64,000 bases of DNA from Thunnus maccoyii. Its lineage: Eukaryota > Chordata > Actinopteri > Scombriformes > Scombridae. This document shows, piece by piece, positions 4,307-64,000 of this stretch. Made by a program: the position numbers and the translations under genes. The stretch is from contig NC_056540.1 in the NCBI RefSeq assembly GCF_910596095.1, positions 23,906,001 to 23,970,000 on the forward strand, in the 5' to 3' direction. The notes beneath the pieces are model-generated. The model saw only the letters and a list, made by a program, of their open reading frames with translations. It was not told the DNA's origin and searched no databases. How positions within the stretch are numbered: the stretch's first letter is position 1; every line of letters begins with the position of its first letter.

Positions 4307-4658
4307 CTCTTGCACAGGGTGCCCCTTTATTTGCACACATATAGTGTATTCAGTGCATTATCTGATAATCCCATTGATTTAGTATAGTTCAGGACTAATA
4401 TTCTTCCATGAATGAACTAGTAGACATCAATCAATGTAATATTTAATACATATAATATGTTATTATTACACTGCATATTCAATGATTAACAAGTATATAA
4501 AATATTGCCTGTTAGCTGAAAACTACTGTGCTAGATATTGATATCCATATTGCTAATAAAACAGATTTATACTTCTGACAGCCAGCTGTGCTTTACTTGT
4601 CTTTAGGCAGTAATCTTATACGCTGTCTCTCATCTCATACATGTGCACGTACACGCTG

Positions 4659-10404: not shown

Positions 10405-11999
10405 TCACTGATTCCCCGCACATGCAGAGAGTGTCCATGCAGGGAGGCAGTAGGCGTAGGGATAATAGTAGGACGGCTGCAGGGAGAGGAGCGGGGGCCG
10501 CAGGATCTCTCCCGGGCTGTACTGTCTCTGGTCGTCCCGCACCAAAACTTTCACCGCCACCTTCTTGGCCGCCGGGGTCGACGCCATCAGATCGGCGGCC
10601 ATCTGGCGGCGTTTCGTCTTGTACCTGCGGTTCTGGAACCAGATCTTGACCTGAGTCTCTGTGAGCTTCAGGGAAGCCGCCAGGTCCGCCCGCTCCGGCC
10701 CAGACAGGTACCGCTGGTGGTTGAAGCGGCGCTCCAACTCGAAGACCTGCGCATGGGAGAAGGCCGCCCTGGAGCGCTTTTTCCTCTGTTTGGGTTGGTC
10801 CAGGCTCTTATCGTCCAGGGTGCTGGAGTCTGAGAGAGGGAGACACGCAGATGGGCCATGCAAGTGAATTCCTGTATTTGTTTGCATTTGTTGATTTCAG
10901 GTGAGCTTGTTGTGTTTTTTGGATGCAACAAAAAGGAGAAACACTTATTAAAAGGAGTGTGAACATTTATACCGAGTGTTTTAATTCTCCAGTTTTACCA
11001 CGTTGTAAGAAACGAACTGCCATGAATTTATCTAAGGTTGCTGGATGCTGCAGCTTTTATATTAAATAGAAAAATGTCTGACACTGAGTTTTCATCCAGG
11101 CCTAAACGTCACAACGTGTGCAGACCTTTATTTACTACGAGGAGACAGTTTCTTGAAATACTACACCGTGTGTTTCTGGTTGTTTGCGACTTTAGTCCCG
11201 AGTTAAATTGTGCCAGTGCATCATATATTAGCTTACAACCGCGAAGACGCCAATAAATGCTCATAAACATAAGTCTTATCGTGACAAAGTTTCACAATGG
11301 GACAATGCATCCATTAATATTCGTGCGTAAAAACAGGCTAATTCGTGCGTAAAAGTGCAAAAAGGACGTGGAGATGTTTTGAAAACAAGCAAACAGGCCT
11401 GATATCCTACAATAACACCGTCAGGTCACTTGTTGTGATTTGATAAACATGTATCAGAAGTGTTGAGCAACAGTATTAAAAGAGCACTGGGCTCTTTAAT
11501 TCAGAATCGCTACTTTTAAAGTTTCATCGGAGCATTTTGGTTTCTAGACTATGAATCAAATCAGAGAGCCACACTTTATTTTTTGTTTTGTGTTTAGTCA
11601 CACGGTCGTCTTTCTGTGTCACTTACCTGTAGCATTATTCGGCTCACTGTCACTCTTTGCGTTTTCCACAGCTGCAGACTCGTGATCCGTTTCTTCCTGC
11701 AGACTTTCCTCCGGCACATCCGACGCAGGGTCTCCGTCCTTCTCCGACTTGCACACGGCCGGAGTCTTGCTGTCGTTGTCATCGCTCAGACCCGAGTCCG
11801 AGTCGTAGCTTTTCTGGTCCGTCGGCTCACAAGACTCCCCATCATCTCTCCCAGACCCGCCGTTCATCTCCCCAAATATTTTCCAGCACGCCGTCTTGGA
11901 GAAGCACATGTCCAAATCTGGCAAGTGTCGGCTGTCGTCCTTTTTGTTCAGGATGGCTTGGATTGAGAAAGGCATCAGCGAGTTGCCACGAACGGCCAT
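10405..11999 (-). CDS. nkx3.2: Homeobox protein Nkx-3.2 (Bapx1)
   Basis: Two coding exons: 11627-11999 (373 nt) and 10405-10829 (425 nt), giving 265 aa. The intron at 10830-11626 has a CAG|GTAAGT donor and a CTCTCAG acceptor and splits one Asp codon. The start is the ATG of [20 protein letters not shown], which matches NKX3-2; an in-frame ATG 22 codons upstream is probably not used. Residues 9-18 form the TN/EH1-like repressor motif (PFSIQAIL). The homeodomain is about residues 141-200, with WFQNRR at 188-193 and the NK-class Tyr at position 54 (Y194). The conserved C-terminus ends with a Tyr-rich [10 protein letters not shown] segment. Nkx3.2 is a transcriptional repressor that promotes chondrogenesis and specifies the jaw joint in fishes. 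Paralogues nkx3.1 and nkx3.3 lack this C-terminus and this gene neighbourhood. Confidence 0.95.
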
Positions 12000-38869: not shown

Positions 38870-39240
38870 TAGTGATTTTTTCCCTTTAAACTTCTCACAT
38901 GGTTTCATTTCAATAAATGTTCAAATGATCCAATATTTCACCAAAAATCAAGGATTAGAGAAAAGTCCAAAAACTGAAAACGGATTTGTGTATCAGAACT
39001 TTGTTTTTTCTTCATTCCTCTCCCATAAATTATCTCATGACCCCTCAGATTTATCTGGTAAGCCTTAGGATAGACCCGACCCCTATGTTGGGAACTATCT
39101 AACTGTATATAAAGTAGTTGAAACTAGCTCCACCTCCAGCAGCTACAACAGTAAGATGCTGCAACTCACTGATGCTTCAGTATTAATGATCTAATGATGT
39201 CATATATAATAATACATCAGTCAGAGGGACCAAACCACGT
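38870..39240. mobile_element. partial copy of the dispersed DNA element
   Basis: Matches 1993-2375 nearly base for base in the same orientation. Landmarks are ACTTCTCACATGGTTTCATT, ACCCCTCAGATTTATCTGG and ATGATGTCATATATAATAAT. Confidence 0.75.
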
Positions 39241-45200: not shown

Positions 45201-47820
45201 TCTATAATTAAAACAGACAATTACACAGATAAAAACTTTTCCTTGTTTTTATCAAAACAAGGAAAAGTGGAGACGCTTCAGTTACTCAGAAGTCTTCTTA
45301 AAGACACCAGCGGCATTTGGGAGCTGAATCATCAATAACTCAACTCAAGCAGTCCAGTGAGTACTTAGCAGCTGTTTTAAATATTTATAAAAATGCATGG
45401 CCCACTGACAAATGAAATTAAACCAGCTTTTATTTAGCAGCCTTGGTAGATACATGTGAGCAGCTGATGAATGTTCCGGTAATAGTCAGAAGATGGTAGC
45501 AAATATCCTGCCAGAAAATCTATGTACTGATATTTTGCCCTGAATTAAGTCCATCAGGCAGGCTTTACTCCCTGGTTAGTTTGAGGAAAGACATTATGTC
45601 GTTGATGGGTAAGGGATGAACTGAGTTAGAAAATAGGTTATTCCATATGGTGATTGGTTAGATTTACCATCATTCATATTATATGAAGATTTCTTTCTCA
45701 AAGACTGTGAGAAATTGACAAGACAGCAAAGTATGACAAATAATGTGGGCATAAGTTTAATTTGTGTCAATCGCTTTGATCATATGATAATAGAGAGACT
45801 GCTCATGGAACATATCTGAAATACAAGAATGTACAGTATTTGTGGCTCAACATCAACACACAAGTGATGACAAAACATTTTTGCAGGATACTAACTTGAG
45901 ATGGGCCTGAATCTCGATCTCCCTCCTGAGTTGATGCTCCACACCCTCCTTCTCCATCTGTGACTTGAACAACACCTTCAGCGCCACAATGGCTTGCAGC
46001 TTCTTCACCCTTGCAAGGTAGACATTGCCAAACTTGCCCTTCCCTAACGGCCGACCGATGTCAAAGTCATCAATTGTGATTTTCCTGAGGAAAAGTGCAG
46101 GGATGGACATTCTCATGATCATCGCAAGATGTTTAAAACTATTCATGAAAACAGAACTACAAACTATTACACAACTGGTGAAGGTCTAGAGAATACACTT
46201 ACTTTGAAGCTGAACTGGAGCTTGCACACTCTCTCCCAGGGCCTAAAAGTGAGAATACAATCAAAACATGCACATTTGTTGTGGTGTCTGAATGGCATCT
46301 GAATGTGAGGAGGGTGGCATTACCTGTGACAGCATTTTTGTCTGTCTCTAGACGTGGCTTCACCTGAACACGCTGTGGGCCTGTCACCATGCTGGGGGTT
46401 GCAAACTGATATTTGGAAGCAAACACACAAAAATGCAGTAGTAAGTACCTTATTGATAATTGATTGACAACACCATGATACAAAGTTACAAAAGAATGCA
46501 TATTTTATTAAACCAACACTAGTTTCCAGTATCTTCACACACTGGCATTTTTATTAACACAGTTTGTTAGTGGCAGTAAAATAGCTGCTAATGAAAATAT
46601 GACTGAACATAGTGGCCAGAGTTGCACATCTTTTTACAAAAATTACATCTTACCGGTCTTTGGAAACTTCTGGGCTCATAATTTTCCTTGTTCTGTAAAG
46701 AAATACACACATACAGATCACATTACATTTTAGCTACCATGTTCTTTGTCATCCAGACTTACATTTGTTGTTTCAGACATTGTCTAAAGTATGAAAAACA
46801 AACATTATGCTGATGAAATGACCTGCACCAACCATTCCTTAAAAGCAGCAGATGGCTCAAATTCTCAGGGATTTTTTTTTATTGCATAAAGAATTGTAGC
46901 TGCAGCCACTTTACTTAAGTTTTGTGCCGCTTTAAACCAGAATGATGACTTAAAGTGTAGACAGTGCTGTAAGGGCTCATCTGACTTCCTGTTTACTTGT
47001 GATTTTCACCCAGATATGTAGCAGCTTTTAAAGACATTTGATGTTTTTCAGTGAGGCCATTTTGGCTTTCTTTGCGTTTTCCCACTTACTTTTCTGATAT
47101 TTTGACCAGTGCTTATAAAAAATTCATATGATGTGCTCTAGATTTAATGTACCAAACAACTGACAGATTAATTGATAGTGAAAGTAATCGTTAGTTGCAG
47201 CTCTAATCTGCAGACTTTTAAAGTGTTCCTTCTGGTCTGGTACATTTTCAACATCACACTATAAAAAGATATGCTATGTCAGGCATTAATTATACACATC
47301 GGGTGGTCTGTTACCTTGTAATAAAGTAATGAAAGTCGGTTTATAATTTGGATTAAACATATTTTACTAATTAGCTGCAAGTGCTTCTGTAAGTACAATA
47401 AGCAGACTCTGTTAAAGGCCTGTTGCATGTTTAAACTAATAACGTTAACAGACTCTCGTTTTAAACAATGATGAAGGTTCAGTAGGCCTCTGTTGAGGCA
47501 GCTTTGCCTCATTTTACAGAATTTAACGTTACAGCTCCACGGGCTATTTTACTGTAAATAACACATACTAAGGTTTATCTTTGCTGTGTTCGTACGGCAT
47601 ATGTTGCCTGTTGTTATTATGTTTTATATACATGGTGACGTTACGATGTTTTAGCTTCGGAGAGTAGCTTAGCGAACCCAACGTTAGCCGGCTAAGTTAG
47701 CTGAAATCTATTTCAACTTGAGCAACATATTTTAAGTAGACAGCCGTTGTTCTGTGTTATTAGCTGTCGCCCAGTCCTACCTCACAATCAAAACATAAAT
47801 AAAACAAACGTTACCTGCAT
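42280..47820 (-). CDS. aurkb: Aurora kinase B
   Basis: Coding exons 47815-47820, 46763-46783, 46654-46692, 46324-46405, 46203-46242, 45896-46084, 44915-45053, 44470-44618, 44182-44356 and 42280-42453 sum to 1014 nt (337 aa; human AURKB 344). A KEN box lies at residues 11-13. The kinase domain starts about residue 70, with P-loop GKGKFG (77-82), VALK with catalytic Lys99, HRD at 191-193, DFG at 211-213 and activation-loop Thr225 in RRRTMCGT. The C-terminus [12 protein letters not shown] is the AURKB type, and LRRRTMCG differs from AURKA. AURKB is the kinase of the chromosomal passenger complex with INCENP, acting at centromeres and the midzone. The first ATG (47820) joins in frame to a second ATG at 46780, so translation may begin at either. 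Confidence 0.95.
45234..45268. repeat. short perfect inverted repeat in an aurkb intron
   Basis: Arms ACTTTTCCTTGTTTT and AAAACAAGGAAAAGT are separated by about four bases. It has no coding role; it could be a hairpin or the relic of a small insertion. Confidence 0.6.
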
Positions 47821-49359: not shown

Positions 49360-50275
49360 CTGACTTGAAACCAGCCAAGCTATCCAGGAACAGCATAGAC
49401 ATGCTGGTCCAGATGCTGCCCCAGGTGGAGCCATGAAAATTGAGGTGCTGGTCATTGTCCACTGACTTGCCTGTGGAGCCTCATACAGGGTAACTGCAGA
49501 CATCTTTGCCATGCCACCAGCCACAGTTTGCAGGACTGTCCAAAACATTGTGGAGAAAATGTTGACCATCTTCCACAAGGCTACTCATTTCCCCAAACCA
49601 GAGGAGATGGAGGAGGTGGGGGCTGGCTTTGTTCGCCTTGCTGGCCATGAGGCATTTCACTGCACTGCCATCGATGGGTGCCACATTGGGATTCTTCCTC
49701 CCGCAGAGCCACAGAAGAAGTGTTATTAAATAGAAAACTTTTCCCCTCTATGATACTGTAGGGCATCTGTGATGCCAAGAGCACATTAATGGATGTGTAC
49801 ATTGGAAATTTAGGATCTGTACATTATACGCGTGTCCTACACAGATCCCTCATGTATCAACAGGGCCTGTATCCACCAGCGGGGTACTTTCTACTAGGAG
49901 ATGGGGGATACCCACGCCTGCAGTGTCCCATTGCTATTACTACACCATAACGCCAGCCTGTAGCAAGTAAGAACACACACACACTCACAGCAAATTGTCA
50001 CTTTGGTCATTTTGAAATACACCATATATTTTGTATGTGAATTTTAATAAACAGGCCAAGTTGAAGCCCATTACAACAGGCACCACGCAAGAGCAAGAAA
50101 CATTATTGAGCGCACCTTTGGGGTCTTGAAAACGTGCTGGCACTCCATCTTTTGAGGGCCCTTCATGAGATCACCCCAAAGGTGATTGCTGCCTGCTGCA
50201 TCCTCCACAACATTAGTGTGGCAGCAGGTGATATCCTGGAGGAGGAGGAGGAGAAGGAGAAAGGCCCAGGCGATG
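49360..50275 (+). pseudogene. PIF/Harbinger transposase (HARBI1-like), decayed
   Basis: Plus-strand fragments match the DDE nuclease of PIF/Harbinger transposases: AMPPATVCRTVQNIVEKM, then GAGFVRLAGHEAFHCTAIDG with the first Asp (AIDGCH), then YFLLGDGGYPRLQ with the second Asp (GDGGYP), then ARARNIIERTFGVLKT with the Glu, then VIAACCILHNISVAAGDILE. The coding frame is broken by stops near 49430, 49470 and 49947 and by a frameshift near 50150. A GT-AG-like gap (about 49968-50051) may be the usual intron. An intact enzyme would bind element ends with its Myb-like partner and cut and paste the element. Confidence 0.75.
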
Positions 50276-50509
50276 TGTGTGTGTGTGTACATATGTTGTA
50301 TGTGTTCATTTGTTGCAATATTCTTTTTCTTGTTCTAATTTAAATTTAACTGCATGACTGTAAATAATTGAATACAACTGTAAAATACAGGACTTTGTAA
50401 TTGTTTTGTTTTGTTGTAAATATACACAGTACACTGTTGCTTTCAAGAATGGATTGCCTGGGTTGAATTTCAAACAATATTTATTTAGAATTTATCAACC
50501 AGTTTCTCA

Positions 50510-50730
50510 AACAAAGACAAATATACTGTTGCTGCCCTTTCCCTCTCCTTCTCTCTTGCTATTGCCTCTCTCCCTCTCCTCATCCCTCTCAGCTTGTTCC
50601 CTCATGAAATTCAGAAGAGTCTGACTCTCCCTGGGCCTCCTCCCATGGGCTGGCTGGCCTTGTCTTCTTCTGCAGAAGGGACATAGGCCGGTGTGCTGAC
50701 TGCGCCACCTGTAGCGGCAGTCAGGTTTGG
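50510..50730 (-). pseudogene. Harbinger accessory (Myb-like) protein fragment, C-terminal part
   Basis: On the minus strand a frame reads CPFCRRRQGQPAHGRRPRES, then QTLLNFMREQAERDEERERG, before degenerating. A charged coiled-coil tail with an LLNFMREQ.ERDEE pattern is typical of the second protein of fish Harbinger elements, which is usually transcribed opposite to the transposase. Only the tail is visible; no Myb/SANT segment was found. Confidence 0.4.
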
Positions 50731-50759
50731 TGCAACAACCAGGGGCGGACTAATCGAGT

Positions 50760-52300
50760 GCTGCCCCTGAAGCGCAACATCCATTAGACTGTATCACTGC
50801 CGGGTGGCAGCAGTCACACTACCGGCCTCTGCCCCTTTGCCTGTGGGTGGGTCCCTAAGCTCCTGAAAATAGGGTATTAATTACTATACTGTGAACCTGA
50901 ATGTTTAAATGTATTCGCAGTCCCAAAGTACACCTAATTTCAAAGGCCACTGTATTATCGTCTGTGTTAGGTTTCTTATATGGTCTGGCAAACTAAAGCT
51001 AAATAGTTTCTTTAAAAGGAATCTCGGGAAGGCTCTCTCAGTATATAATACTAAGCAGAGAAACAGATTACCTTGTATTTGTCTTTTAGTTTATTTCATT
51101 TCTTTTTCCCCTGTTTGGCAGTTGTTTCCAGGCCAGATGTGGCAACAAAGTCCCTAGCAGTGCAGTGCAATGCATTTGAGCTCTCAGCTTTTTAAAAAAA
51201 TAAAATTAATTTCAGATTTCTGCATTTTCAGCAATGCTTTGCGATTCATTTCAGCTGTCAGCAGTCACATGCATTTTCTAGTTCGTGTTACAGTCCTAAT
51301 TCCTAATTATTCCAGTTAGCAAGGACTTCACAATGAAATGCTTAAATGACTTTTTAAATACAAAATATTACTATTTTTCTGACATACCAATACAATAGCT
51401 GCTTTCTGGTGAGTCAGGTGATTTAGGCCTCTTTAGTCCTAAATGTGCACCAAACACATGAATATGAACTTTTGATTAATTTACAGCCAAGTAAAAATGT
51501 CAAATGTAATATGGGCAGTTTTAAAGTAGAGCTACAATGTTTACTTGATAAAGTTGATTGGAAGACAATTAATCAGCAATTATATTTTAATTTTATATAA
51601 TTGTTTCACTATTTTTTTTTTATAAAAATATGTTGGTTTCAGCTTCTCAAATATGCAGATTTGCTGCTTTTCTCTGTTATATCCCTGTGAAATGAATATC
51701 TTGGGGTTTGGGACTGTAGATCGGACAAAACAAGACATTTGAAGAAGTTCCTTTGGGCTTCTTTAAATGACATTAAAATTGGCATTTTTTTCCTATTATT
51801 TAAATTTCATTTATTTGGTCTTCAAAATAGATGTGAAACTGAAAATGTTTGCTTACAACAACTGAAAAACTGAAATCCCTCCCTATGAAAAACTTTCAAG
51901 TTAAAGGCCAGTATCCACTTTAGATGAGGCAACCAGTCACTGAAGTAGCAGCGCTGGGGGAACCCTTGGGTACATGGATAAAAAATTAAACATTCAAGCA
52001 CCAACACTATTTCAGCATACATCATACCGAGATTTCTATGAAGCTCAAGCAACCTCAGCGCTGATGTTCCAGATGAGCCGAATAGTAAAGATACATGACA
52101 ACGAATATATGTTAGCTTAAAATATATGATATATAGTGGGAGAACATTCTCAGCTGCCTCTCAGAAGGAGACTCTGAAACATCATCTTCCATTGGTCCTG
52201 TTGATGAATCTGCTACTGATACCACTTGCTTGTCACCCTTTGCCTTTATATACTCTGAAATGAGAGGGGACAGGAGAGACTCATTACAAATATGTTATTG
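50760..52300. other. region without a recognisable gene
   Basis: AT-rich, with no domain-bearing ORF. It may contain the remaining right part of the Harbinger element, but I could not locate terminal inverted repeats. Confidence 0.35.
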
Positions 52301-52307
52301 ACTAGGC

Positions 52308-52540
52308 CTACATGACAAAGGACACTCTTACACCATCTTTCACAAGGGCATCACTTATAGCCTTCTGATGTGGATGCTTGACGTCATACATCCTTTGCTG
52401 TCCACCACTGAAAAATGATGTGATATTCTGACCTGAAGCAACTGGTGTGACATCTGACGCAGTGGAGGCACGGTACTGTGTGAACCCAAGGGAAGATAGG
52501 ATACACACTTTAGCTTGCTGATGCCAAACTGTTTCAAGTC
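52308..52540 (-). pseudogene. hAT transposase fragment (possible)
   Basis: A minus-strand frame reads SGQNITSFFSGGQQRMYDVK, then HPHQKAISDALVKDG, before a stop. This resembles the linker after the BED zinc finger of hAT transposases (..SFF...Y...HP.QK.I..ALV.D.). It is short, and I see no catalytic region next to it. Confidence 0.35.
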
Positions 52541-53457
52541 ATCTTTCTTACAGCGAAAAAGTGCGTATGGCTATAACAATATGAAATAACAATATAAATT
52601 ATACACATAGCTGTTTGAACCATTACCACTTAAGTTACATTTTTGGTTATCTATATAACTAACATGCCATATAAGTAGATTAACTAATTTCAGCTAGCTG
52701 GATAAATGAAAAGCATGAGAAAACAGACATCTTTTACTAGACTGACAGGACAGGGATTAATGAGCTAAACCTCATTTATTATTGATTTAATTATGTTACA
52801 TGCTAACTAGCTGAGCTTTAACTCTGCTTCCCCTGTGAGTCTGTATGTTTATATTGTAGTTGTGTTAAGGAGGGTGTGATATCGTTAGAAGACACAGCCA
52901 GGTCTTACTGTTCAAAAGCTATGCATGCCTGTATTCAGATTTTGGCACGTCCAATGCTGCATATATTACCATATTTTCAAACCCAAAAACCAAACCAATT
53001 AAGTGTACTGCACGTTCATGCACGCGTGTGCATGTATGGGTCACCCAGCTTGAAACTGTGACATACCCAGACAAACTGGGACGTCTGTTCACCGCAGCAT
53101 ATAAGCAAAGAAAAATATTCACATATTTATGGTATGACATGTAACAGTTAACGTTGGCAAATGAATCAATTTTTGGTTGGATTAACATTACACATCATAT
53201 TGTAACGATAGCTAACGTTTAGTATAGTTTAGTTTAGCTAAGTATGTGGATATTCTTCTGTGCACTGCTATAAAAAAAAAAATTCTTGTAGCTTTCTACC
53301 AGTAACGCTAATTTATTTAACTTACCTATAAATTGCATTTGATTCCAGTGATATAATATCCCCACAACCAAACCGAATATCTTGGACCCAGTGGTTGAGT
53401 CACTTCAGTGGCTAACGTTAGCTAAAGTTAATGTTAGCTTAAGTTAACGTTAGCTTG

Positions 53458-54741
53458 TCATTTCAGCCAGCTGCTGCTGGAAATTATTCAAGCGATGACA
53501 AGCTCCTTTTTGGGTTCTCTCAATAACAGGTGTGTCACCATTACCGAGGAGCAAGTTCAGGTCAAACTGGGCGACACACTGGCTCAGCTTCGCTGAAGTT
53601 ATGGACATGAAGGACCAACCCCAGTGTGTCAGCTCCGAACGCCTGCTGGCTAAAGAGGTCACAAAGAGTGTCAGCTCTGCCCTCTCTGCTGATAACACTG
53701 CTGACTCTGGAATAAGCCAGCACGTCACACTGACTGAACAACATGATTATTCATACCTAAAAGAAAAAGTTTGTGGCCAGATGTGGCAAAATGAAAATGT
53801 GCACACCCAGAGCACGTCAGAAGACAGCGAGCCGGTCTGCCTCCCAGATGACGACCAGCTCAGAGCTGGTATTGCAGACAGACCATGCGATACATCGCAT
53901 GGTGACACAACTGAAGAAGAAATTCCATCACAAGTCTAAAGCTGAAAGCAGCAAGTCGATGGAGATTATCTTCAAGGATATTGACCAACTGTTAACAGAG
54001 GAGGACGGGGACATACAGGAAGACAAAGGCAGGAATGAGCTTTATGTATTTCCCAGATATAAAACACCTGCTGGCACCAATGTAGTGGTAATCACCAAAG
54101 AACTCACTGAAATGATTTACTGCTACATCAACTATGGGAACATGATGCCGGAAATCATTCCAGAGGCTATGAGGAGGAAGGCAGTGGCTGTTCCTCAGGT
54201 CGATGCTGCCATGTATGAGGACATACGCAAGAAAGTCTGCTGTTTCCTGGCTCTCATCAACTGGTGGCAGAAAACCCAGGCTGCCAGCCACTCTGACACA
54301 GTCATACTGACTTTACAACACCTTGAGTCACTGTCACAGACACAGTCAGCAGAGGTCAACGCAGAGGAGGACCACGTATCTGTGACATCTAGTGCAGCGG
54401 CAGCCTCTGAACGTGAGGAGACACAATCTTGATCTTCACAGGAAGTTGCAGCTCTGGCAGAGAGAAAAAAGCTGTCAGTCCTATTCCCTGTGGAGAGGCT
54501 GGTTTCTCAGCTGTACATCAAGGCCAAGGTGAACTGGACCGTATCGCAGCCAGAAGTCATCATCCGGCGTCTCTTCCGGAGGATATGGACTGAAGTCGAG
54601 GAAGCAGAATTAACAATAACCCCAGAAACATTTGGAAAAACTCAACAAGGCGTGTTCAAAGATCTGATGAAGGAGTGGGGCTGTGCAATGACTGTGCTGG
54701 TTTTAATGACTTTAGAGGTGCCAGCCATGGAAGAATTGTAA
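53458..54741 (+). pseudogene. broken copy of the 731-aa orphan family (copy A)
   Basis: The plus strand carries the same protein as 61277-63472 in pieces. LLLEIIQAMTSSFLGSLNNR starts at about 53465. After a frameshift near 53590 comes DMKDQPQCVSSERLLAKEVT and onward to about 53880. After a second frame change comes a long stretch from HRMVTQLKKKFHHKSKAE to SEREETQS, with TGA at 54430-54432, then SSQEVAALAERKKLSVLFPV onward to VPAMEEL at 54741. Relative to the intact copy it lacks the first 50 or so residues, all of the acidic repeat region and its flanks (about 230 residues), and the last 30 or so residues. The internal stop sits where the intact copy has an Arg codon, consistent with a CGA-to-TGA change. 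Some parts keep over 85% identity by eye. Confidence 0.8.
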
Positions 54742-55079
54742 TAAATCTGAAATGGTATGTTTTTTGTGTTAACTCTATTAGATATACTGATTATAAAAAA
54801 TACTGAACAGTAGATAATAGGTTTGGCTCAGGGAGTATCTTAAGGTATACAGTTTTTTATTTTTGTGTAATATTCCATCTTACATCAAACAGTCTAGCTA
54901 GATTTCTAATTCTGTTTTATTTAATTTTAATTTTATTAATTTATTATCTCCATTTTATTGATTTTGTTTATTGTATTCTTCCATTTTCTTAGCTGTGGTG
55001 TCTTTTGTCATCTGCTCAAGTGCCACTGCACTTAAAATTCTGTACCGGTTGTTCCTTTAATTTGTCACCAGTCCGTATG

Positions 55080-55215
55080 TCTGTAAGTCTGTCTGTCTGT
55101 CTGTCTGTATGTATGTATGTATATACAGTATGTATGCATGTAAGTCTGTATGTTTACAGTATGTGTGTGTGTATGTATGTATGTATATATATGTGTGTGT
55201 GTGTGTACGTTACAC
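55080..55215. repeat. GTCT/GTAT/GTGT tetranucleotide array
   Basis: Successive runs of GTCT, GTAT and GTGT units; ORFs through it read as Val-Cys or Tyr-Met-Cys repeats and are not genes. Confidence 0.9.
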
Positions 55216-55268
55216 CCATAGAGTGGAAACTCATTCGAGGGGTGACATATTTTAGAAAATAATTTATT

Positions 55269-55346
55269 CTGAAAGAACAAATTAAAACACAGTGTGAGTC
55301 GGCTGATCTTCCGTGGCTTTACTGTTTGTACGTTAACTGCCAACTG
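55269..55346. repeat. about 78-bp direct repeat, copy 1
   Basis: Starts CTGAAAGAACAAATTAAAAC and ends CTGCCAACTG. It matches 56372-56449 with only a few differences, in the same direction, 1.1 kb away. Both copies are next to GTAT/GTCT arrays. Confidence 0.8.
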
Positions 55347-56371
55347 TAATTAGTTGGAACAATACAATAATGCAAATTCAATATTTCAAAATACAGTAAT
55401 TATGCATAAAGTAGCTATTTCCATTTAAAATCAATAGGCTAACAGAATCATCAAAAATATACATAAAATAGGCTATTAAAAATTATCAATTCTATATAAG
55501 AATTTGGAAAGTGCTTTATCAGTCTATTATCTACAATTATCTACAATTCTTATCATTTCCAGTATGAAACAATTATCTCATTCCCTCATAACTTCACTCA
55601 AACAACAGTTATATTAATGATATAATTTCAATTTCAATTCAAATTGCTTTATTGGCATGAACCAAAAACATGTTGCCAAAGCAGTTTACAGAGGATTCAT
55701 ATATTACATATTACATATACATATTAAATACACAGGTGTGTGGTCTATACAGTCAGGTTCTGAACCTGTCCGTACATTAAAGTCTTCACACAGAAGTATT
55801 TTACCTTTGGCTTGAAAGTGACATATCTCTCATTCATCCTCTCTATCTACATGTGACGTATTACAACCTACAACCCGTGAGCTGTCTGGTTGCCTTGGCA
55901 ATGGTAAACAACAGCGCTGCTGATCAGCTGTTCGGGTTCTGGCTCTAACTGTCTACATTGTATAACCGTTATAAACAAACTGAAAATAAACGTTATTAAC
56001 CGTTATAAACTGGAACTGAAAATAAACGTTATTAACTGTTAGAAGAAAACGAACAAAACAAAGAAAATATAAACCACAAAACACCACAAAAATAAATCTT
56101 ACACATACATACATATAAGTGGAGTCAGGCAAACCTTACATCTGATACCCTTTGGCGTTTTGACAGGTTTAATTTAAAGTAACCGTAACCGGCAAGCTAG
56201 TGCCAACTTGTCCCACCAAGCTAGCGCATATACCACTGATAACCTACAAACTACACACTACAATACATAAAACAGTACAATAACAATGAAAACAAGAATA
56301 AAACAATAAAAACAGTACATTAGATAGAAAAACCAAAAAACTGTATACACACTTACATGACATTTACCCAC
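55347..56371. other. repeat-bounded spacer, no gene seen
   Basis: AT-rich. A segment at about 55630-55700 (CTTTATTGGCATGAACC) resembles the 3' tail of a fish interspersed repeat. GTTGCCTTGGCAAT at 55889-55902 is an X-box-like half palindrome. No ORF of note. Confidence 0.4.
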
Positions 56372-56449
56372 CTGAAAGAACAAATTAAAACACAGTGCGA
56401 GTCGGATGATCTTCCGTGGCTTAACGGTTGGTACGTTATCTGCCAACTG
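56372..56449. repeat. about 78-bp direct repeat, copy 2
   Basis: Second copy of the sequence at 55269-55346, differing at a handful of positions. Confidence 0.8.
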
Positions 56450-56543
56450 AAGAATGCAACAGGCTCATACCTTATATACCCCCAGGTGGTCTCGTGCCTT
56501 TTTCACTCCAAATATCAATATGAAATATTAAATAGGGGGGGGG

Positions 56544-56780
56544 GGCGGTATGTATGTATATATGTGGGTATGTATGTGTGTATGTACAGTAAGTAAGTCT
56601 GTATATCTGTATATATGTATGTATGTATGTAAGTCTGTCTGTCTGTCTGTCTGTCTGTCTGTATGTATGTATGTATGCATGTGTACAGTATGTATGTATG
56701 TATGTATACATGTATGTAAGAATGTATTTATGTATGTGTATGTGTACAGTATGCATGTATGTACAGTATGTATGTGCACT
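56544..56780. repeat. GTAT/GTCT tetranucleotide array
   Basis: About 235 bp of GTAT, GTCT and GTAC units with interruptions, ending near GTACAGTATG. Confidence 0.9.
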
Positions 56781-57195
56781 GGCGTCTGGTCATTGGCTAA
56801 CTTGTCACCAGAAAGAACTGTGCAAACAAACAAGTGTTATTATTAATTCACAAATCTGTTATAATTTATTATCTATGAATAAAGCATCTTGCTAAATTGC
56901 TAAATTGTTAAGATTTTAGTTCACGTTTATTGTTCTTTGACTTGCTGCTTCAGACTGCGTTCTCCCGATTCGTGTCTGCAGCAGGCCTACGGTGGCTAGC
57001 GTGGATGAGGGGCTAGCCCCATCCTCACAATGCAATGTGTATGTGTATTGTATGTGGGAAAATATTAATACACATGCTCCATTTCATTTCATTTCATGCA
57101 TTTCATGTTTCACAGTTGATTGGCTAAGCCTGTCACTCAGTCACTCAGACAGCCAACGAGTTAGACTAGTCACCAGCTAACGTAAATTTGAGAAA

Positions 57196-58985
57196 ATGAA
57201 CAAAGTGGATTACATACTGGAGCACAGGTTTGAAACCCCAACTTTGGAGGAGAAAGTGGAAATAAAGCACATTGGAGCCCACCAGCCACGGGATGTCACT
57301 TTCACTCAAAGTGCTGGTAAAGTTAACCGCGGATTAACGTTGAGTGGTTTTCAAAGAAAAAGTGGCTAATGGTTCGCTTACAGAAGAAGTCACTCTTCTG
57401 TTTTCCGTGTCTGCTATTCGTTAGAGATGGTACTTGGTTGAGGACGGGTGAAAGCATTTTAAAACATCTTTCTGAGAGGATTGCAAAACACAAGCGCAGC
57501 AGGAGTCATCTGAACAACGCTGTAAAATTGGGACTACTTGGGAGAGTAAACGTTGCTACACAAATTGACACTGCATACAGGTGCTCCATTGAGCAGCACA
57601 ACAAACAGGCGGAGGAAAACAGGTACGTGCTCAGTCAGATAATAACGTGTATTAAACTCTGTGGAAAATGTGAAACAGCGCTTCGGGGCCACGACAAGTC
57701 AGTGGACTCGCTGAATCCGGGAATATTTAGGTGTATTTTTGAGACTATGTGTGAGGGGGATTTGAGGCTTCAGAGGCACTATGATGCTCAGCCCACATTC
57801 AAGGGGACATCCAGCACTGTACAAAATGAACTGTTAGACTGTATGTATGAAGTGTACAGGGAGGAGATAGCCAAGCAGGTGGAGGAGAAATCATTTGTCA
57901 CCATACAGGCAGACAAGACTACTGATGTCTCTTGTAAATCACAGATGGTGGTTGTGCTACGATACATGTTGCCTGACAGAGTGTGTGATAGAGAGGTTTT
58001 TGGAGTTTGTTGAAGTTAAAGATAAAACTGGCCTCGGCCTCTATATGTGATTGGCTTCTCCAATCACACATAGTCTCCAATAGCATCAAGGCTGTGTTGG
58101 AACCACTGAAGCTGGGAGACAAGCTGATCGCTCAGACTTATGATGGTGCAGCTGTAATGAGTGGGAACGTCCATGGGGTACAGACGCTAATGAAAGAGAC
58201 ATATCCACATGCCCAGTTTGTTCACTGCTATGCCCACCAGCTGAACCTGACCGTGCAGCAACTCTGTTCAGCAAGGATGTGCATCCTGAAGGTGTTTTTT
58301 GCAGATTTAACGGCTTTTGCCACCTTCTTCTCTGGCGCTACAAAACGTGTAGCGACTCTAGCAGAGGCAACACAGAGACGCATTCCAAGGCCACCTGCTG
58401 TGTGATTGAACTTTGAGAGCAGAACTGTCAATGCAGTTTAGGAGAACCGTGCTGCGCTGCTCCAGTGTATGGAGAACATACACACAATCAGGATAGGATG
58501 AGGCCACCATGAGTGAGGCATATGGCCTGTCAAAGAAACTCCAGGACTCCAGGAAACTCCTTTCTGAAGCTGCTGGAATTCTTTTCCTTGCCTATGCCAG
58601 AAGTAGATGTTTTATACAACACTCTGCAAAAACGGAGCATCGATGCACCTGGGATTGGCAGTGCCCTCACCTGTTTCAAGGAGAATGTCCAGAATATACA
58701 GCTGCAAACTGATGAATTGGCCGCCACCACTCATGATGGAGCAGAGGAGCCAGGCCAACGAGTAACCAACACAGCACCGGTGATGAAGGAGGGATGTGAC
58801 AGTGATCTCTCAGGTGGGGCAGAGGTTTTCACAGAGTGACCACCTGATCGCTGCAAAGCTGGTTGACAGCTTACTCTTCCCACAGTTTGTCCTGTCATTC
58901 CCTACATCTGAGCTTGACTGTGCTGTGAAACTATGGCCTATAGGAAACAAGGAAAAGTTAAAGATTGAACTGACCACTCTGTACC
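57196..58985 (+). pseudogene. hAT transposase, ZMYM1/DUF4371-like, decayed
   Basis: From the ATG at 57196 the frame reads MNKVDYILEHRFETPTLEEK. A 1-nt shift near 57357 (in an A-run) leads to the long block KSLFCFPCLLF, a TTF-type zinc finger remnant, then HLSERIAKHKRSRSH and TIQADKTTDVSCKSQMVVVL (57369-58010). A further shift near 58000 and a small palindromic insertion at 58040-58075 precede SNSIKAVLEPLKLGDKLIAQ, TYDGAAVMSG and HAQFVHCYAHQLNLTVQQ. The D of DKTTDVS and of YDGA are in the RNase-H-like catalytic core. More disabling stops follow 58400. The C-terminal dimerisation region is cut off at the CA array at 59008. Confidence 0.75.
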
Positions 58986-59006
58986 ACCACACTGAGCTTC
59001 ATACTG

Positions 59007-59007
<1 letters not shown>

Positions 59008-59047
<40 letters not shown>

Positions 59048-59062
59048 AACACACATACACAC
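59008..59062. repeat. (CA)n microsatellite
   Basis: About 50 bp of CA with AA and TA interruptions; it separates the hAT remnant from the next repeat. Confidence 0.9.
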
Positions 59063-59940
59063 TGGTGGAAGAAGTACTCAGATCATATACTTAAAAGTAG
59101 CAATGCCACAGTTTCAAAGTACTCCATTATAAGTAAAGTTCCTGCATTCAAAATCCTACTTAAGTAAAAGTAAATAAGTATTATAAGATAAATGTAGATA
59201 AAGTATTCATTCTGCAGTAAAATGTCCCCTGTGACATTATTTTATGACATTATAAGATTGTTAATACTGATGCATCAATGTGTATGCAGCATTTTACTGT
59301 TGTTTTACTGTAATTACATACTTTATCAGGGTGTATTTAATAGATCAGTCACAGCCAAATTTTGTGCAAAACAAAATTATTGAGAAAATTCAAATCTATT
59401 ACAGAGAAAATGGAGACAGTTCTGAGACAGTCATTTTAGTTTGTTGTGTTGTGTTTACGTACATACATACATACTGTACAAATACAGACTTACATACATA
59501 CAGACTTACTTACATACTGTACATACATAGATACATACATACATACATACATACATACAACCACGCCCATATATTCTTTTCCTGTCCGGTTTTGCAGGAA
59601 TATTGGACTGAACATTTATTGAAATGAAACCATGTGAGAAGTTTAGAGGGAAAAATCACTATTTGGTGGAGCTGTTAATAACTCATAGACATCTGAAATG
59701 TTACCCCAGCTACACACTGCTTTCTGTGAGATGTCAAACACCAAAAAGGTTGGAAACCACTGGTTTCATCTTTAACAATATGTTCTATTTTAAAAGCTTG
59801 TTATATTATCCATTGTGTCACATCTTCATCTGAAAACAAACTTAAACTGTCAAATAAATATATTGGAGTAGAAAGGACAATATTTCCCTCTGAAATTTAA
59901 AGTAAAGTACAAGTACCTCAAAATTCACACTTTTTTAAAT
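59061..59940. mobile_element. dispersed non-autonomous DNA element, reverse copy
   Basis: Begins CTGGTGGAAGAAGTACTCAG, the inverse of the end of the copy at 1768-2528, and ends near AAAGTACAAGTACCTCAAAA. A CATA/GTAC tetranucleotide segment (59455-59560) with adjacent sequence has been inserted or expanded inside it, which explains its greater length. Confidence 0.7.
59455..59560. repeat. CATA/GTAC tetranucleotide array
   Basis: ACATACATAC runs with interspersed ACTGTACA units. Confidence 0.85.
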
Positions 59941-60832
59941 TTATTTATTAGTTTATTTTTCAGGGACGATGCAAAAAACATTGTAACAGGTTAAAATAAC
60001 ATGAAACAGATGTGTTGCATATATGATTTATAGCCAAGGTTAATTTGCGACCCCTGTCCCTGGTTAGGCTTTTTTACTTAGAATAGTCATAACATATCAC
60101 TACCAGAAATACATTAATTAAATAATATAATAAATAATAAATAGTGACATTCTCAATCGCAACAGTATTTACATCACATAATTTACATGTGTTGCATATG
60201 TGTGTGAATGTGTATGTTCCCTAATTCATGGCAATGATGTATATATATGCATAGTATTTATAGGTGTATGTGTCCATGTACATACATGCATAATCTATAT
60301 CAGTGCATGTATGTTTATCTATATGTATCTGTTCCTCTATCTATGTATACATGTCCATGTGCATGTGTGCATGCACATGGACATGATCATAGGTCAATGA
60401 TCGCAGGTTTGGTTTTGTTTCAGCCAATGTTTCACCTTTTCATTAAATGTTTTCAGATCGGTTTGTATTTTTATTTCTGTTGGTAAGGCAACAGTATAAA
60501 TATATACACATGACAAGTTACCTTGTAAAAGACAGGACTGAATAAAACAGTACAGGAGATACACCCTTTAATAAATTGTATATCTAATAGAGTTAACACA
60601 AAAAACATACCAGATCAGATGTATTGCAAAATGCAAGAAGACTCTTTTTTTGTTTTGAGATGATCAAAAGAATTGATACAAGACAAGACAGAACGTAATA
60701 CAATGCATGACATTACATGATTAATACAACAAGACAAAACATGCTTCTAATATTTAGAGCTTTGACTGCAAATGATAAGAAAAGTGATATTGAATTTAAA
60801 CACTTGTATTGAATGTTTTTTATTGAATTGAA
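59941..60832. other. repeat-rich intergenic DNA, no gene seen
   Basis: Contains a segment (about 59950-60075) with wording common to fish interspersed repeats (GGACGATGCAAAAAACATTG; ACCCCTGTCCCTGGTTAGGC), a diffuse GTAT/CATG-rich stretch at 60200-60400, and an AATTGAATTTATTGA-type tail at 60825-60840. Confidence 0.4.
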
Positions 60833-60838
60833 TTTATT
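60833..60838 (-). terminator. possible polyadenylation signal for the orphan gene
   Basis: AATAAA on the minus strand (plus TTTATT), about 440 nt beyond the stop codon at 61277 and just past the minisatellite; another lies at 60819-60824. Confidence 0.35.
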
Positions 60839-60841
60839 GAT

Positions 60842-61290
60842 TACCCACCCCCTAAATAACCCCCTGCATTCATCTTGAAGGAAAAAAGTAATCCGGGCTC
60901 ACTTTTTCCCTTCAAGATGAAGGCTAGCCACCCCCCCCTAAAAAACCCCTGCATTCATCTTGAAGGAAAAAAGTAATCCGGGCTCACTTTGTCCCTTCAA
61001 GATGAAGGCTAGCCACCCCCCCCCTAAAAAACCCCTGCATTCATCTTGAAGGAAAAAAGTAATCCGGGCTCACTTTTTCCCTTCAAGATGAAGGCTAGCC
61101 ACCCCCCCCTTAAAAACCCCTGCATTCATCTTGAAGGAAAAAAGTAATCCGGGCTCACTTTTTCCCTTCAAGATGAAGGCTAGCCACCCCCCTAAAGAAC
61201 CCCCTGCATTCATCTTGAAGGAAAAAGGCAATCCGGGCTCACTTTTTCCCTTCAAGATGAAGGCTACCCATCCCCCCTACATAACCCCAA
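60842..61290. repeat. 85-bp minisatellite, about five units, each with an internal inverted repeat
   Basis: The landmark TGCATTCATCTTGAAGG recurs at 60865, 60950, 61036, 61121 and 61205 (spacing 84-86 bp). Each unit holds TTCATCTTGAAGG(A)AAAAA and, about 16 bases later, TTTTTCCCTTCAAGATGAA, an 18-of-19 inverted match that can fold into a hairpin. Units are separated by a C-rich stretch and TAAAAAACCCC. The array starts directly beyond the stop codon of the 731-aa ORF. Confidence 0.9.
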
Positions 61291-63472
61291 CCCTGTGTGT
61301 CCGTCTGAAGGTCCTGGAGAGAGCTCTTCCCATCGCAGAGAAGAACCTGGTGATGGCATTCCCTTTCTTCGTCACAAGGTGCCGGCAGAAAGAGGAAGTC
61401 AAGAATTCTTCCATGTCCGGGTCCTCTGAAATCATCAAAATCAACACATACTCTGCACAGCCCCACTCCTTCGCCAAGTCTTTGAACACCGCCTTGTCGA
61501 GTTTTTCAAATGTGTCTGGGGTTATTGTTAATTTTACTTCCTCGACTTCGGCCCATATCCTCCGGAAGAGACGCCGGATGATGACCTCTGGCTGTGATAC
61601 GGTCCACTTCACCTTGGCCTTGTTATAGACTCGAGAAACCAGCCTTTCCACGAGGAATAGGACTGACATCTCTTTTCTCTTCGCAAGTTCCTGTGAAGAC
61701 CGAGATTGTGTCTCCTCAGTTTCAGAGGTTGCCACGGCAGCAGGTGTCAAAGATTCCTGCTCCTCCTCTGCGTTGACCACTACTGACTGTGTCTGTGACA
61801 GTGACTCAGGGTGTTGTAACGCCAGTGTGACTCTGTCGGAGTGGCTGGCAGCCTGGGTTTTCTGCCACCAGTTGATGAGAGCAAGGAAACAGCGGACTTT
61901 CTTGCGTATGTCCTCATACATGGCAGCATCAACCTGAGGAACAGCCACCGCCTTCCTCCTCATGGCCTTTGGAATGATTTCCGGCATCATGTTCCCATAT
62001 TTGATGTAGCAGTAAATCATCTCAGTGAGTTCTTTGGTGATTACCACTACATTGGTGCCAGCAGGTGTTTTATATCTGGGAAATACACAAAGCTCATTCC
62101 CGCCTTTGTCTTTTTGTATCTCCCCGTCCTCCTCCGTTAACAGATGGTCGACACTCTTGAAGATGACCTCCATCGACTGGTTGCTTACAGCTTTACACTT
62201 GTGATGGAATTTCTTCTTCAGTTGTGTCACCATGCGATGTATCGACGCTTTGGCGACGAGCTTTGCAAAGAAGTTCTTTATAAGGCTGCTCGCTCTTTTC
62301 AGAGACACTCTGCCCTTATGTTTGGATGCTCTAATTAAAGTCTTGACCTCACTGGCAATCATTTTAGCAATGTCCTTAGACACAACCTCAATGTCAGAAG
62401 AAGTCTCAGACTTCAGCAGCTCATACTCAGAATCTTCTACATCCTGGAAAAGAGGCTCTGTGATGTCATCAACAGCTTTTTCAATGATCTCCTGGACAAC
62501 TTTAGCTGTTTCAACCACAAATGGGTCTTGCGGTGACTCCTCCTCAGCTTGTGGCTCCTCCTCGTCTTCTTCCTCCAGATCCGGCAAGACAAATGGGTCT
62601 TGTGGTGGCTCTTCCTCAGCTTGTGGCTCCTCCTCCTCCTGTGACTGACAGCTGTCACTGTCATCTTCGTCCTCCGGATCCTGCAAGACAAATGGGTCTT
62701 GTGGTGGCTCTTCCTCAGATTGTGGCTCCTCCTCCTCCTGTGACTGACAGCTGTCACTGTCGTCTTCGTCCTCCGGATCCTGCAAGACAAATGGGTCTTG
62801 TGGTGGCTCTTCCTCAGATTGTGGCTCCTCCTCCTCCTGTGACTGACAGCTGTCATTGTCATCTTTGTCCCAAAGATCCTTAAAAAATAGCTGTGAGCTG
62901 GTCGTCATTTGGGAGGAAGACCGGCTCCCTCTCTTCTGACGTGCTCGGGGTGTACACATTTTTATTTTGCCACATCTTTTCACAAACCTTTTCAACATTT
63001 TTGAGGTGAGGATAATCATATTGTTCAATCTGCTGGGGCGTGTGACGTGCTGGCTTATTCCAGACTCGGTGGTGTTAGCAGCAGAGAGGGCAGAGCTGAC
63101 ACTCTTTGTGACCTCTTTAGCCAGCAAGTTTGTCAGACGTTCAGAGCTGACACACTTGGGTTGGTCCTCCAAGTCCAGAGCTTCAGCAAAGCTCTGACCC
63201 AGTGTGTCGCCCAGTTTTGTCTGAACTTCCTCCTCAGAAATGGTGACACTCCTGTTCTTGAGCGAACCCAAACAGGAGTTTGTCACTGCTTGAATAATTT
63301 CAAGCATCAGCTCAGCAAGAAAGATTTTGGTGGCATTGTCAGGAAAACCGCTTTTCAACAGAGTCCACTGGTCCTCTGTCATCCTGTTAACAAAGGTTTG
63401 GATTGGCGGGCGAAAAATTTCAACTGTGATCTCCAGCATCTCCTTTGAGCAAGAGTTTCCTGTTCTATTCAT
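61277..63472 (-). CDS. uncharacterised 731-aa intronless protein (orphan family, copy B)
   Basis: A single uninterrupted ORF of 731 codons. I do not recognise the family. The start ATG at 63472 gives MNRTGNSCSKEMLEITVEIF. Visible layout: an amphipathic helical N-terminus (1-150) with LLAKEVTKSVSSALSAA; a basic Ser-rich patch (about 165-195); an acidic tandem repeat of 33-residue units (about 197-321); a second helical segment with SKDIAKMIASEVKTLIRA; then a well-ordered core (about 425-545) with RYKTPAGTNVVVITKELTEM and MYEDIRKKVRCFLALINWWQ; a Ser/Thr/Glu-rich linker; and a C-terminal helical block with WTVSQPEVIIRRLFRRIWAE, ending in a basic tail. No signal peptide, membrane segment or known catalytic motif is evident. 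The broken copy at 53458-54741 preserves the core and C-terminal block, so these are the constrained parts. The lack of introns suggests a retro-derived or young duplicated gene. It lies among transposons, but I see no transposase or polymerase hallmark in it. Confidence 0.75.
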   Translation of the reverse strand: MNRTGNSCSKEMLEITVEIFRPPIQTFVNRMTEDQWTLLKSGFPDNATKIFLAELMLEIIQAVTNSCLGSLKNRSVTISEEEVQTKLGDTLGQSFAEALDLEDQPKCVSSERLTNLLAKEVTKSVSSALSAANTTESGISQHVTRPSRLNNMIILTSKMLKRFVKRCGKIKMCTPRARQKRGSRSSSQMTTSSQLFFKDLWDKDDNDSCQSQEEEEPQSEEEPPQDPFVLQDPEDEDDSDSCQSQEEEEPQSEEEPPQDPFVLQDPEDEDDSDSCQSQEEEEPQAEEEPPQDPFVLPDLEEEDEEEPQAEEESPQDPFVVETAKVVQEIIEKAVDDITEPLFQDVEDSEYELLKSETSSDIEVVSKDIAKMIASEVKTLIRASKHKGRVSLKRASSLIKNFFAKLVAKASIHRMVTQLKKKFHHKCKAVSNQSMEVIFKSVDHLLTEEDGEIQKDKGGNELCVFPRYKTPAGTNVVVITKELTEMIYCYIKYGNMMPEIIPKAMRRKAVAVPQVDAAMYEDIRKKVRCFLALINWWQKTQAASHSDRVTLALQHPESLSQTQSVVVNAEEEQESLTPAAVATSETEETQSRSSQELAKRKEMSVLFLVERLVSRVYNKAKVKWTVSQPEVIIRRLFRRIWAEVEEVKLTITPDTFEKLDKAVFKDLAKEWGCAEYVLILMISEDPDMEEFLTSSFCRHLVTKKGNAITRFFSAMGRALSRTFRRTHRVGVM
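62510..62880 (-). repeat. 99-bp coding tandem repeat inside the orphan ORF
   Basis: The 99-bp unit encodes DDSDSCQSQEEEEPQSEEEP plus PQDPFVLQDPEDE (33 aa). Three near-identical units (landmark CAAATGGGTCTTG at 62590, 62689 and 62788) are followed by one shortened unit 72 bp away. It is strongly acidic, and each unit ends in a QDPFVLQDPED patch. Confidence 0.92.
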
Positions 63473-63647
63473 GGTGATTGTTATGATGTTTTATCTTCGA
63501 TGCTTGATGATTGATGCTTAATGCGCTCTGTGTACTGCACTGGGCTCAGTTTTCACGTACTAATGTGAAAAGTTAAACACGTCGAATAGACAGAATTGAG
63601 ATATATACATGTGGTTCTGGGTCTATGAAGGGTACAGTATTTCACAG

Positions 63648-63727
63648 GATCAAAAAAGATCAAAGACGGTCAAAGAAGATCAAAAACGGTCAAAGACGGT
63701 CAAAGAAGATCAAAGACGGTCAAAGGA
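63648..63727. repeat. 10-bp-period tandem array upstream of the orphan ORF
   Basis: Eight decamers of the form GATCAAAGAC or GGTCAAAGAA in mixed order, 175-255 bp upstream of the start codon at 63472. GATCAAAG matches the TCF/LEF core, and GGTCAAAG resembles a nuclear-receptor half site. Confidence 0.85.
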
Positions 63728-63889
63728 ACAAAGCCACTGATCTCTATGATGTCACAGATCACAGGAGCCACATTCCATAAACCCCGCCCCAAAGCAGCGA
63801 TTGTTGCTCAGCAACTGTTGCTAAGCGGCTCCAGCACCCTTTGGCAGATTGTGCTGTAGAATTTAGTGTCTTTTTAAAGTCTGAAATGA

Positions 63890-64000
63890 TTTTCAAAGTT
63901 GAAATCAGTTTGATTTGACTTTTTTACTCTCAGTAACAACTGCAGACCAAAAGTAGTGGTTTGGTCTCCCTGACTGATATATTATTATATATGACATCAT
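63890..64000. mobile_element. partial dispersed DNA element at the right edge (reverse)
   Basis: The inverse of 2340-2390: ATGATGTCATATATAATAAT followed by CAGTCAGGGAGACCAAACCA. It continues beyond the window. Confidence 0.7.

What the first reader, a model, noticed from the sequence alone, without database searches (positions are those of the whole stretch)
61277..63472. Intact intronless 731-codon ORF of an unfamiliar family, with a dead second copy 7 kb away
The ORF is long, uninterrupted and protein-like. Its core and C-terminal block are shared with the pseudogene at 53458-54741, so it belongs to a family that duplicates and is under some constraint. It has no hallmark I can tie to a known family or to a transposon enzyme. 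It has its own repeat array in the coding region, in the 3' flank and upstream. This is the best candidate in the window for an undescribed gene.
Basis: partly seen in the sequence, partly recalled or inferred. Interest (0 to 1): 0.72.

Follow-up and report, generated by a model that had tools for sequence, protein, structure and literature searches.

The report
Intronless fish gene family with hairpins
This genome, probably a fish's, carries at least eighteen intact copies of a one-exon gene family that matches no protein family we could search, and most copies have a long hairpin-forming stretch just after the stop codon, whose job is unknown.

Summary
The ORF is real: 731 codons, one exon, coding-like, with a decayed copy at 53465-54738. 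In the window's own genome (782 Mb, 54 contigs) it is one of at least 18 intact single-exon copies (546-888 aa) on C5, C7, C8, C11, C12, C13, C17 and C19, including a 97% identical sibling 4.6 kb beyond the window copy. Selection is mostly purifying (whole-protein dN/dS 0.42-0.63 against nine paralogues), with a constrained core and a fast linker. Pfam, PDB and NCBIfam give no relative; fold comparison is inconclusive. The main new point: the 3' array, which begins at the stop codon, is made of 59-nt hairpins. They occur at 15 loci, 14 of them beside family copies or fragments. Arms are 44/46 identical to those of a subfamily only 38% identical in protein, while the loop (3/16) and fourfold-degenerate sites (47/92) have diverged. 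11 of 18 copies have this hairpin; the four C17 copies have a different long stem in the same place. Twelve of 18 upstream regions carry an RFX-like X-box or half-site. Best reading: an undescribed helical-protein gene family controlled through 3' hairpins. Expression, protein function and occurrence in other species were not testable.

The parts
61277..63472 (-). 731-codon single-exon ORF (TAG stop included)
   Evidence: 17 other intact copies
61793..62062 (-). residues 471-560, most constrained stretch of the core
   Evidence: dN/dS 0.26 against the decayed copy; surrounding 425-560 0.15-0.48 against L010-L017
62565..62870 (-). 99-bp coding repeat (33-residue acidic units)
   Evidence: unit number differs between copies
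61280..61375 (-). residues 700-731, C-terminal cationic amphipathic helix, family motif FFSxxGKALSKPFRR
   Evidence: low model confidence there
60843..61288 (-). 85-bp x 5.2 array of H1 hairpins; it begins at the stop codon and overlaps the last bases of the ORF
60567..60629 (-). 3' flank shared with the decayed copy
63803..63815 (-). X-box-like palindrome GTTGCTGAGCAAC, 330-343 bases upstream of the ATG
   Evidence: (1 match in the window; 6 of 100 shuffles had one or more)
63648..63725 (.). upstream 10/20/30-bp tandem repeat
53465..54738 (+). decayed family copy

Best explanation
It is an intact member of an undescribed, multi-copy, single-exon gene family of this genome. SHOWN: at least 18 intact copies; purifying selection on the core; upstream DNA copied together with the ORF, so copying was at DNA level from an already intronless gene; and, in most copies, long hairpins just after the stop codon, one type of which is nearly confined to the family. 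INFERRED: the protein is a mostly helical scaffold, with an N-terminal and a C-terminal helical domain joined by an acidic, fast-changing linker, ending in a cationic amphipathic helix that could bind membrane or nucleic acid. INFERRED: RFX-type factors drive it, pointing to male germ line or ciliated cells. INFERRED: the hairpins act in the transcript as stems of about 22 bp that are bound, or cut by an RNase III-type enzyme, and so set the stability, 3' end or location of these mRNAs.
For: 50 matching stretches in the own genome; intact ATG-to-stop ORF in 17 of 20 fetched loci; 29 invariant columns in 18 rows. dN/dS of P0001 against nine paralogues 0.42-0.63. Genome search with two array units: 131 matches, those listed all beside a family copy or fragment except C7:33041893. 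Arm 20-mer with up to 2 mismatches: 218 places against 15 for the control pattern; only the first places (all exact) were listed, and these lie in family 3' flanks except C7:33042104 at the same orphan place. Arms 44/46 identical between a P0001 unit and L019, loop 3/16, fourfold sites 47/92. 28 of 53 distinct units aligned: 94.9% of cells paired (shuffle mean 93.9, 0 of 500 as high), 3 of 23 pairs with changes on both sides; slid controls 46-58% paired. Stem score 19 or more within 1 kb downstream in 15 of 18 copies, upstream 0 of 18, window tiles 2 of 52. X-box or CCTAGCAAC within 600 bp upstream in 12 of 18, expected about 0.006 per copy.
Against: No expression data; nothing shows that the hairpins are transcribed. 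H1 is absent from 7 of 18 intact copies (L011, L012, L022-L026) and L022 has no long stem. Covariation is thin: the covariation score is 0.053 against up to 0.048 when slid, and slid versions also reach 2 pairs with double changes; conservation is of sequence as much as of pairing. C-terminal dN/dS is 1.04-1.13 in three P0001 pairs, and N-terminal or middle parts exceed 1 in L013-L015 against L017. Mean pLDDT is 45.6. The half-site was chosen after seeing the promoter alignment; the full X-box is in 4 of 18. Copies are related, so counts over copies are not independent.
Confidence: 0.6

Rival explanations
1. The hairpins are a DNA feature without an RNA role: palindromes prone to copying that expand and spread among family copies and cause the family's instability.
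For: Array length varies greatly (5 units at P0001, about 4.7 kb at L010); window copy and L009 are an inverted, head-to-head pair.
Against: Arms are nearly unchanged while loop and spacers differ between subfamilies, which copying of whole segments would not give; the position at the stop codon is kept; H1 is nearly confined to the family.
Confidence: 0.25
2. The gene with its 3' hairpins is an unrecognised mobile element, the ORF being its mobility or accessory protein.
For: Single exon, copies on at least eight contigs carrying intact ORFs, hairpins at the 3' end, shared flanks.
Against: No transposase, integrase, RT or helicase domain in 9 of 18 members scanned; few copies, most of those fetched intact (17 of 20); several sit in tandem or inverted clusters; no common element end was found (not searched systematically).
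Confidence: 0.1
3. An ordinary lineage-specific gene family, already listed in fish annotation as uncharacterised genes; the hairpins are a by-product.
For: Lineage-specific multi-copy genes are common (recalled); protein evolves fast.
Against: Arm conservation exceeding that of fourfold sites.
Confidence: 0.3

Closest known systems
Replication-dependent histone genes (recalled)
   Same: Intronless, multi-copy, conserved stem-loop shortly after the stop codon.
   Different: Stem of about 22 bp with a loop of roughly 14-16 nt, often in tandem; unrelated protein; AATAAA motifs downstream in the window copy.
microRNA precursors, and hairpins cut within an mRNA as in DGCR8 (recalled)
   Same: Stem length; arms conserved while the loop diverges.
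   Different: No Rfam miRNA family at its cut-off; best is MIR2670 at 39.8 bits against 117; no small-RNA data.
Drosophila hpRNA genes (recalled)
   Same: Long inverted repeats tied to fast-evolving multi-copy genes.
   Different: Here the hairpins follow protein-coding ORFs; no complementarity to the ORFs was tested beyond the arm search.
Lineage-specific zebrafish genes, PMC3599513, and sea bass single-exon genes, PMC8207432 (search listings only)
   Same: Fish genes without outside relatives; single-exon fish genes.
   Different: I did not check whether this family is among them.

Membership tests
Named protein family in Pfam-A | score above the curated cut-off | tested here: not met
   P0001 and 8 of the other 17 intact members: only matches below cut-off
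Protein with a relative of solved structure | sequence match in PDB | tested here: not met
   none at E up to 1 or 5
Protein with a relative of solved structure | fold match in PDB | tested here: inconclusive
Transposon-encoded protein | transposase, integrase, RT or helicase domain | tested here: not met
   (9 of 18 members); DUF4371 only in the separate element at 57369-58010
Histone-type mRNA 3' end | histone stem-loop | tested here: not met
   no Rfam family at gathering score in window 50000-64000
microRNA gene | hairpin with conserved arms and freer loop | tested here: met
microRNA gene | processed small RNAs with fixed ends | not testable with these tools
   no expression data held
RFX-regulated gene | X-box in the promoter | tested here: inconclusive
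   full X-box in 4 of 18, X-box or half-site in 12 of 18; consensus recalled, half-site chosen afterwards

The most novel reading that the evidence does not exclude
The 3' hairpins are a family-wide RNA device: each transcript carries stems that are cut into small RNAs able to act on every copy, or that replace ordinary 3'-end formation, so that a dispersed intronless family regulates itself as one unit, with different subfamilies keeping different hairpins in the same place.
Probability: 0.2. Interest if true: 0.85.

Novelty: new variant of a known kind. Interest (0 to 1): 0.58.

Why it matters
Lineage-specific multi-copy genes are common but mostly unexplained. This one has a testable handle: a hairpin whose arms are far better conserved than the protein it follows and which is nearly confined to the family. 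If it works in RNA it is a new example of control of an intronless gene family; if in DNA, it shows how palindromes persist beside genes. Small-RNA and RNA-seq data from the right tissue would decide.

Tried and rejected
Relatives elsewhere: P0001 in viral contigs (8 stretches matched a pattern, none confirmed), in genome contigs (20 stretches, none confirmed), in plasmids by tblastn (no match); a DNA pattern in viral contigs (0). These are not fish collections, so they say nothing about other fish.

Upstream block at about -757 to -519: first noted as family-specific; a genome search showed a dispersed repeat with 2051 candidates; withdrawn. One search was aimed at the wrong side of the gene by an orientation slip and concerns the 3' flank. 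One search pooled several loci in one file by mistake; redone per locus.

PHROG match phrog_36733 (E 0.0034, unknown function): weak and single, not pursued. Internal repeat between the main parts of the protein: none convincing. Rfam at E up to 1: 10 matches, all to miRNA models far below their cut-offs.

Insertion in the live copy instead of deletion in the decayed one: rejected, since all 18 intact copies have the C-terminal block.

Searches did not complete: second hairpin type H2, the C17 hairpin, the C17 protein, the C13 protein, a gapped hairpin pattern. So the copy count is a lower bound and the family-specificity of those other hairpins is untested. The Foldseek 'viral' library and the second structure job were not used.

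That nothing matching is in print rests only on word searches (listings seen).

Full report
THE OBSERVATION. The ORF at 61277-63472 (-) is exact. Simulated DNA of the same make-up had no stop-free run above 205 codons in 500 trials, and the frame scores as coding in all six segments. The decayed copy on the other strand (53465-54738) matches in DNA at 754/851 and 351/424 in two blocks and shares 3' flank. It has in-frame stops, small indels and two large deletions; the filler at one deletion junction looks like an inverted copy of the adjacent bases (by eye).

GENOME CONTEXT. The window lies at C8:23906001-23970000 of a genome of 782,140,779 bases in 54 contigs. Other genes in the window: a homeobox gene at 10405-10887 (Pfam; the name nkx3-2 is recalled), bod1l1-like reading frames (name recalled; weak COMPASS-Shg1 match below cut-off) and an Aurora kinase B-like exon at 45904-46125. 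Bod1l1 next to Nkx3.2 on one strand is the conserved vertebrate order described in PMC9665848 (passages seen).

A FAMILY. A six-frame search of the own genome with the protein gave 50 matching stretches. I fetched 20 loci; 17 hold an intact ATG-to-stop ORF of 546-888 codons and 3 are broken (L018, L027, L028). With the window copy that is 18 intact copies: C5 three, C7 one, C8 three, C11 three, C12 two, C13 one, C17 four, C19 one. The nearest (L009, 97% identical) is head to head with the window copy, 4.6 kb between the ATGs, with 98% identical upstream DNA over 1508 bases. Four smaller remnants are in L030-L033. The 18-row alignment has 29 invariant columns and a C-terminal motif FFSxxGKALSKPFRR in the consensus. 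A tree separates the C17 group, the C11 group, the single divergent C13 copy and the window's own group; the C13 row is long and its place unsure.

SELECTION. Against nine paralogues, P0001 has whole-protein dN/dS 0.42-0.63. Residues 425-560 give 0.15-0.48 against L010-L017 (0.79 against the very close L009, dS 0.012); the linker 561-600 gives 0.52-1.66; the C-terminal block 601-731 gives 0.26-1.13. In L013-L015 against L017, the N-terminal part gives 1.5-1.7 and the middle part about 2.5-2.6. Near-identical pairs in L013-L015 have too few changes to judge. Against the decayed copy the whole value is 0.54 (bootstrap 0.38-0.79); residues 410-700 give 0.60 (0.37-1.03), 471-560 0.26 and 561-610 2.05. 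So the core is constrained and other parts change fast.

THE 3' HAIRPINS. The array begins at the stop codon. Each unit holds an inverted repeat of 59 nt (arms 83-86% complementary over 29 nt, or 90% over 21 nt in the first unit; G-U not counted), and the array folds better than all 100 shuffles (z -8.56). A genome search with two units gave 131 matches, those listed all in the 3' flank of family copies or fragments except C7:33041893, where no coding remnant was found within the 9-kb stretch fetched, though similar companion hairpins are there by eye. Pattern counting over the fetched loci gave 100 units (one may be counted twice where L010 and L034 overlap) at 15 loci: 11 of 18 intact copies, 2 of 3 broken loci, 1 of 4 remnants and the orphan. 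Arms are 44/46 identical between a window unit and L019, of a subfamily 38% identical in protein, although the loop is 3/16 and fourfold sites 47/92. Spacers outside the hairpin differ too, so exchange of whole segments does not explain it. I aligned 28 of 53 distinct units: 94.9% of cells paired against 93.9% in shuffles, three pairs with changes on both sides, including C-G to G-C in L016; slid controls pair 46-58% but reach up to two such pairs. The seven copies without H1 are L011, L012 and L022-L026; the four C17 copies have another stem in the same place (score 19-24), L011 and L012 only 16, L022 only 13. Overall 15 of 18 copies have a stem score of 19 or more within 1 kb downstream, against 0 of 18 upstream and 2 of 52 window tiles. 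The arm 20-mer has 218 places with up to two mismatches against 15 for the control; only the first, exact ones were listed, so the rest were not seen one by one.

THE PROMOTER. Six representatives of the window's own group share upstream blocks with TAGCAAC and GTTGC elements, TGACATC, and (not in L016) a GC-rich box, and a second block near the ATG. An X-box or the half-site CCTAGCAAC lies within 600 bp upstream in 12 of 18 copies, expected about 0.006 per copy; the full X-box in 4. The half-site was chosen after seeing the alignment. That RFX sites mark ciliated-cell and male-germ-cell genes is recalled.

READING. The family is real and undescribed as far as these tools reach. Its most unusual feature is the hairpin: nearly confined to the family, fixed in position, arms almost frozen, loop free. 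I favour an RNA role, because about 22 bp is the size that RNase III enzymes and double-strand-binding proteins use (recalled), but nothing here shows transcription. Other fish genomes, expression and small RNAs were out of reach.

Noticed in passing
L029 (C7:33037500-33046500), around 4388-4446: Orphan place with the H1 hairpin and companion hairpins but no family coding remnant in the stretch fetched.
   Followed up: partly
L010/L034, C8:6463574-6468297: The hairpin array after L010 spans about 4.7 kb, against five units after the window copy.
   Followed up: partly
L020:6475-6697, and the matching places in L019 and L021: A partial copy of the coding region (residues about 377-427), directly followed by a second H1 hairpin.
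   Followed up: partly
L013-L017, 3' flanks: Two further hairpin types (AGAGCTTCAGTCCTGCCT... and TCTGAGGG...CCTTCAGA) occur among H1 units; whether they are family-specific did not complete.
   Followed up: partly
L023-L026 (C17 copies): Their own coding repeat VIFVGPESPETPTSQE and, folded for L023, a strong 3' hairpin (-72.7 kcal/mol in 160 nt).
   Followed up: partly
window 63950-64000; also 1992-2374 and 38870-39238: Related copies of a common dispersed repeat; the block just upstream has 2051 candidates in the genome.
   Followed up: partly
window 45904-46125 (-): Aurora kinase B-like exon (PDB 4af3, E 3.1e-29).
   Followed up: no
window 57181-58900 (+): Decayed hAT-like transposase between the two copies (DUF4371 match below cut-off, E 2.1e-05; the hAT name is recalled).
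   Followed up: no
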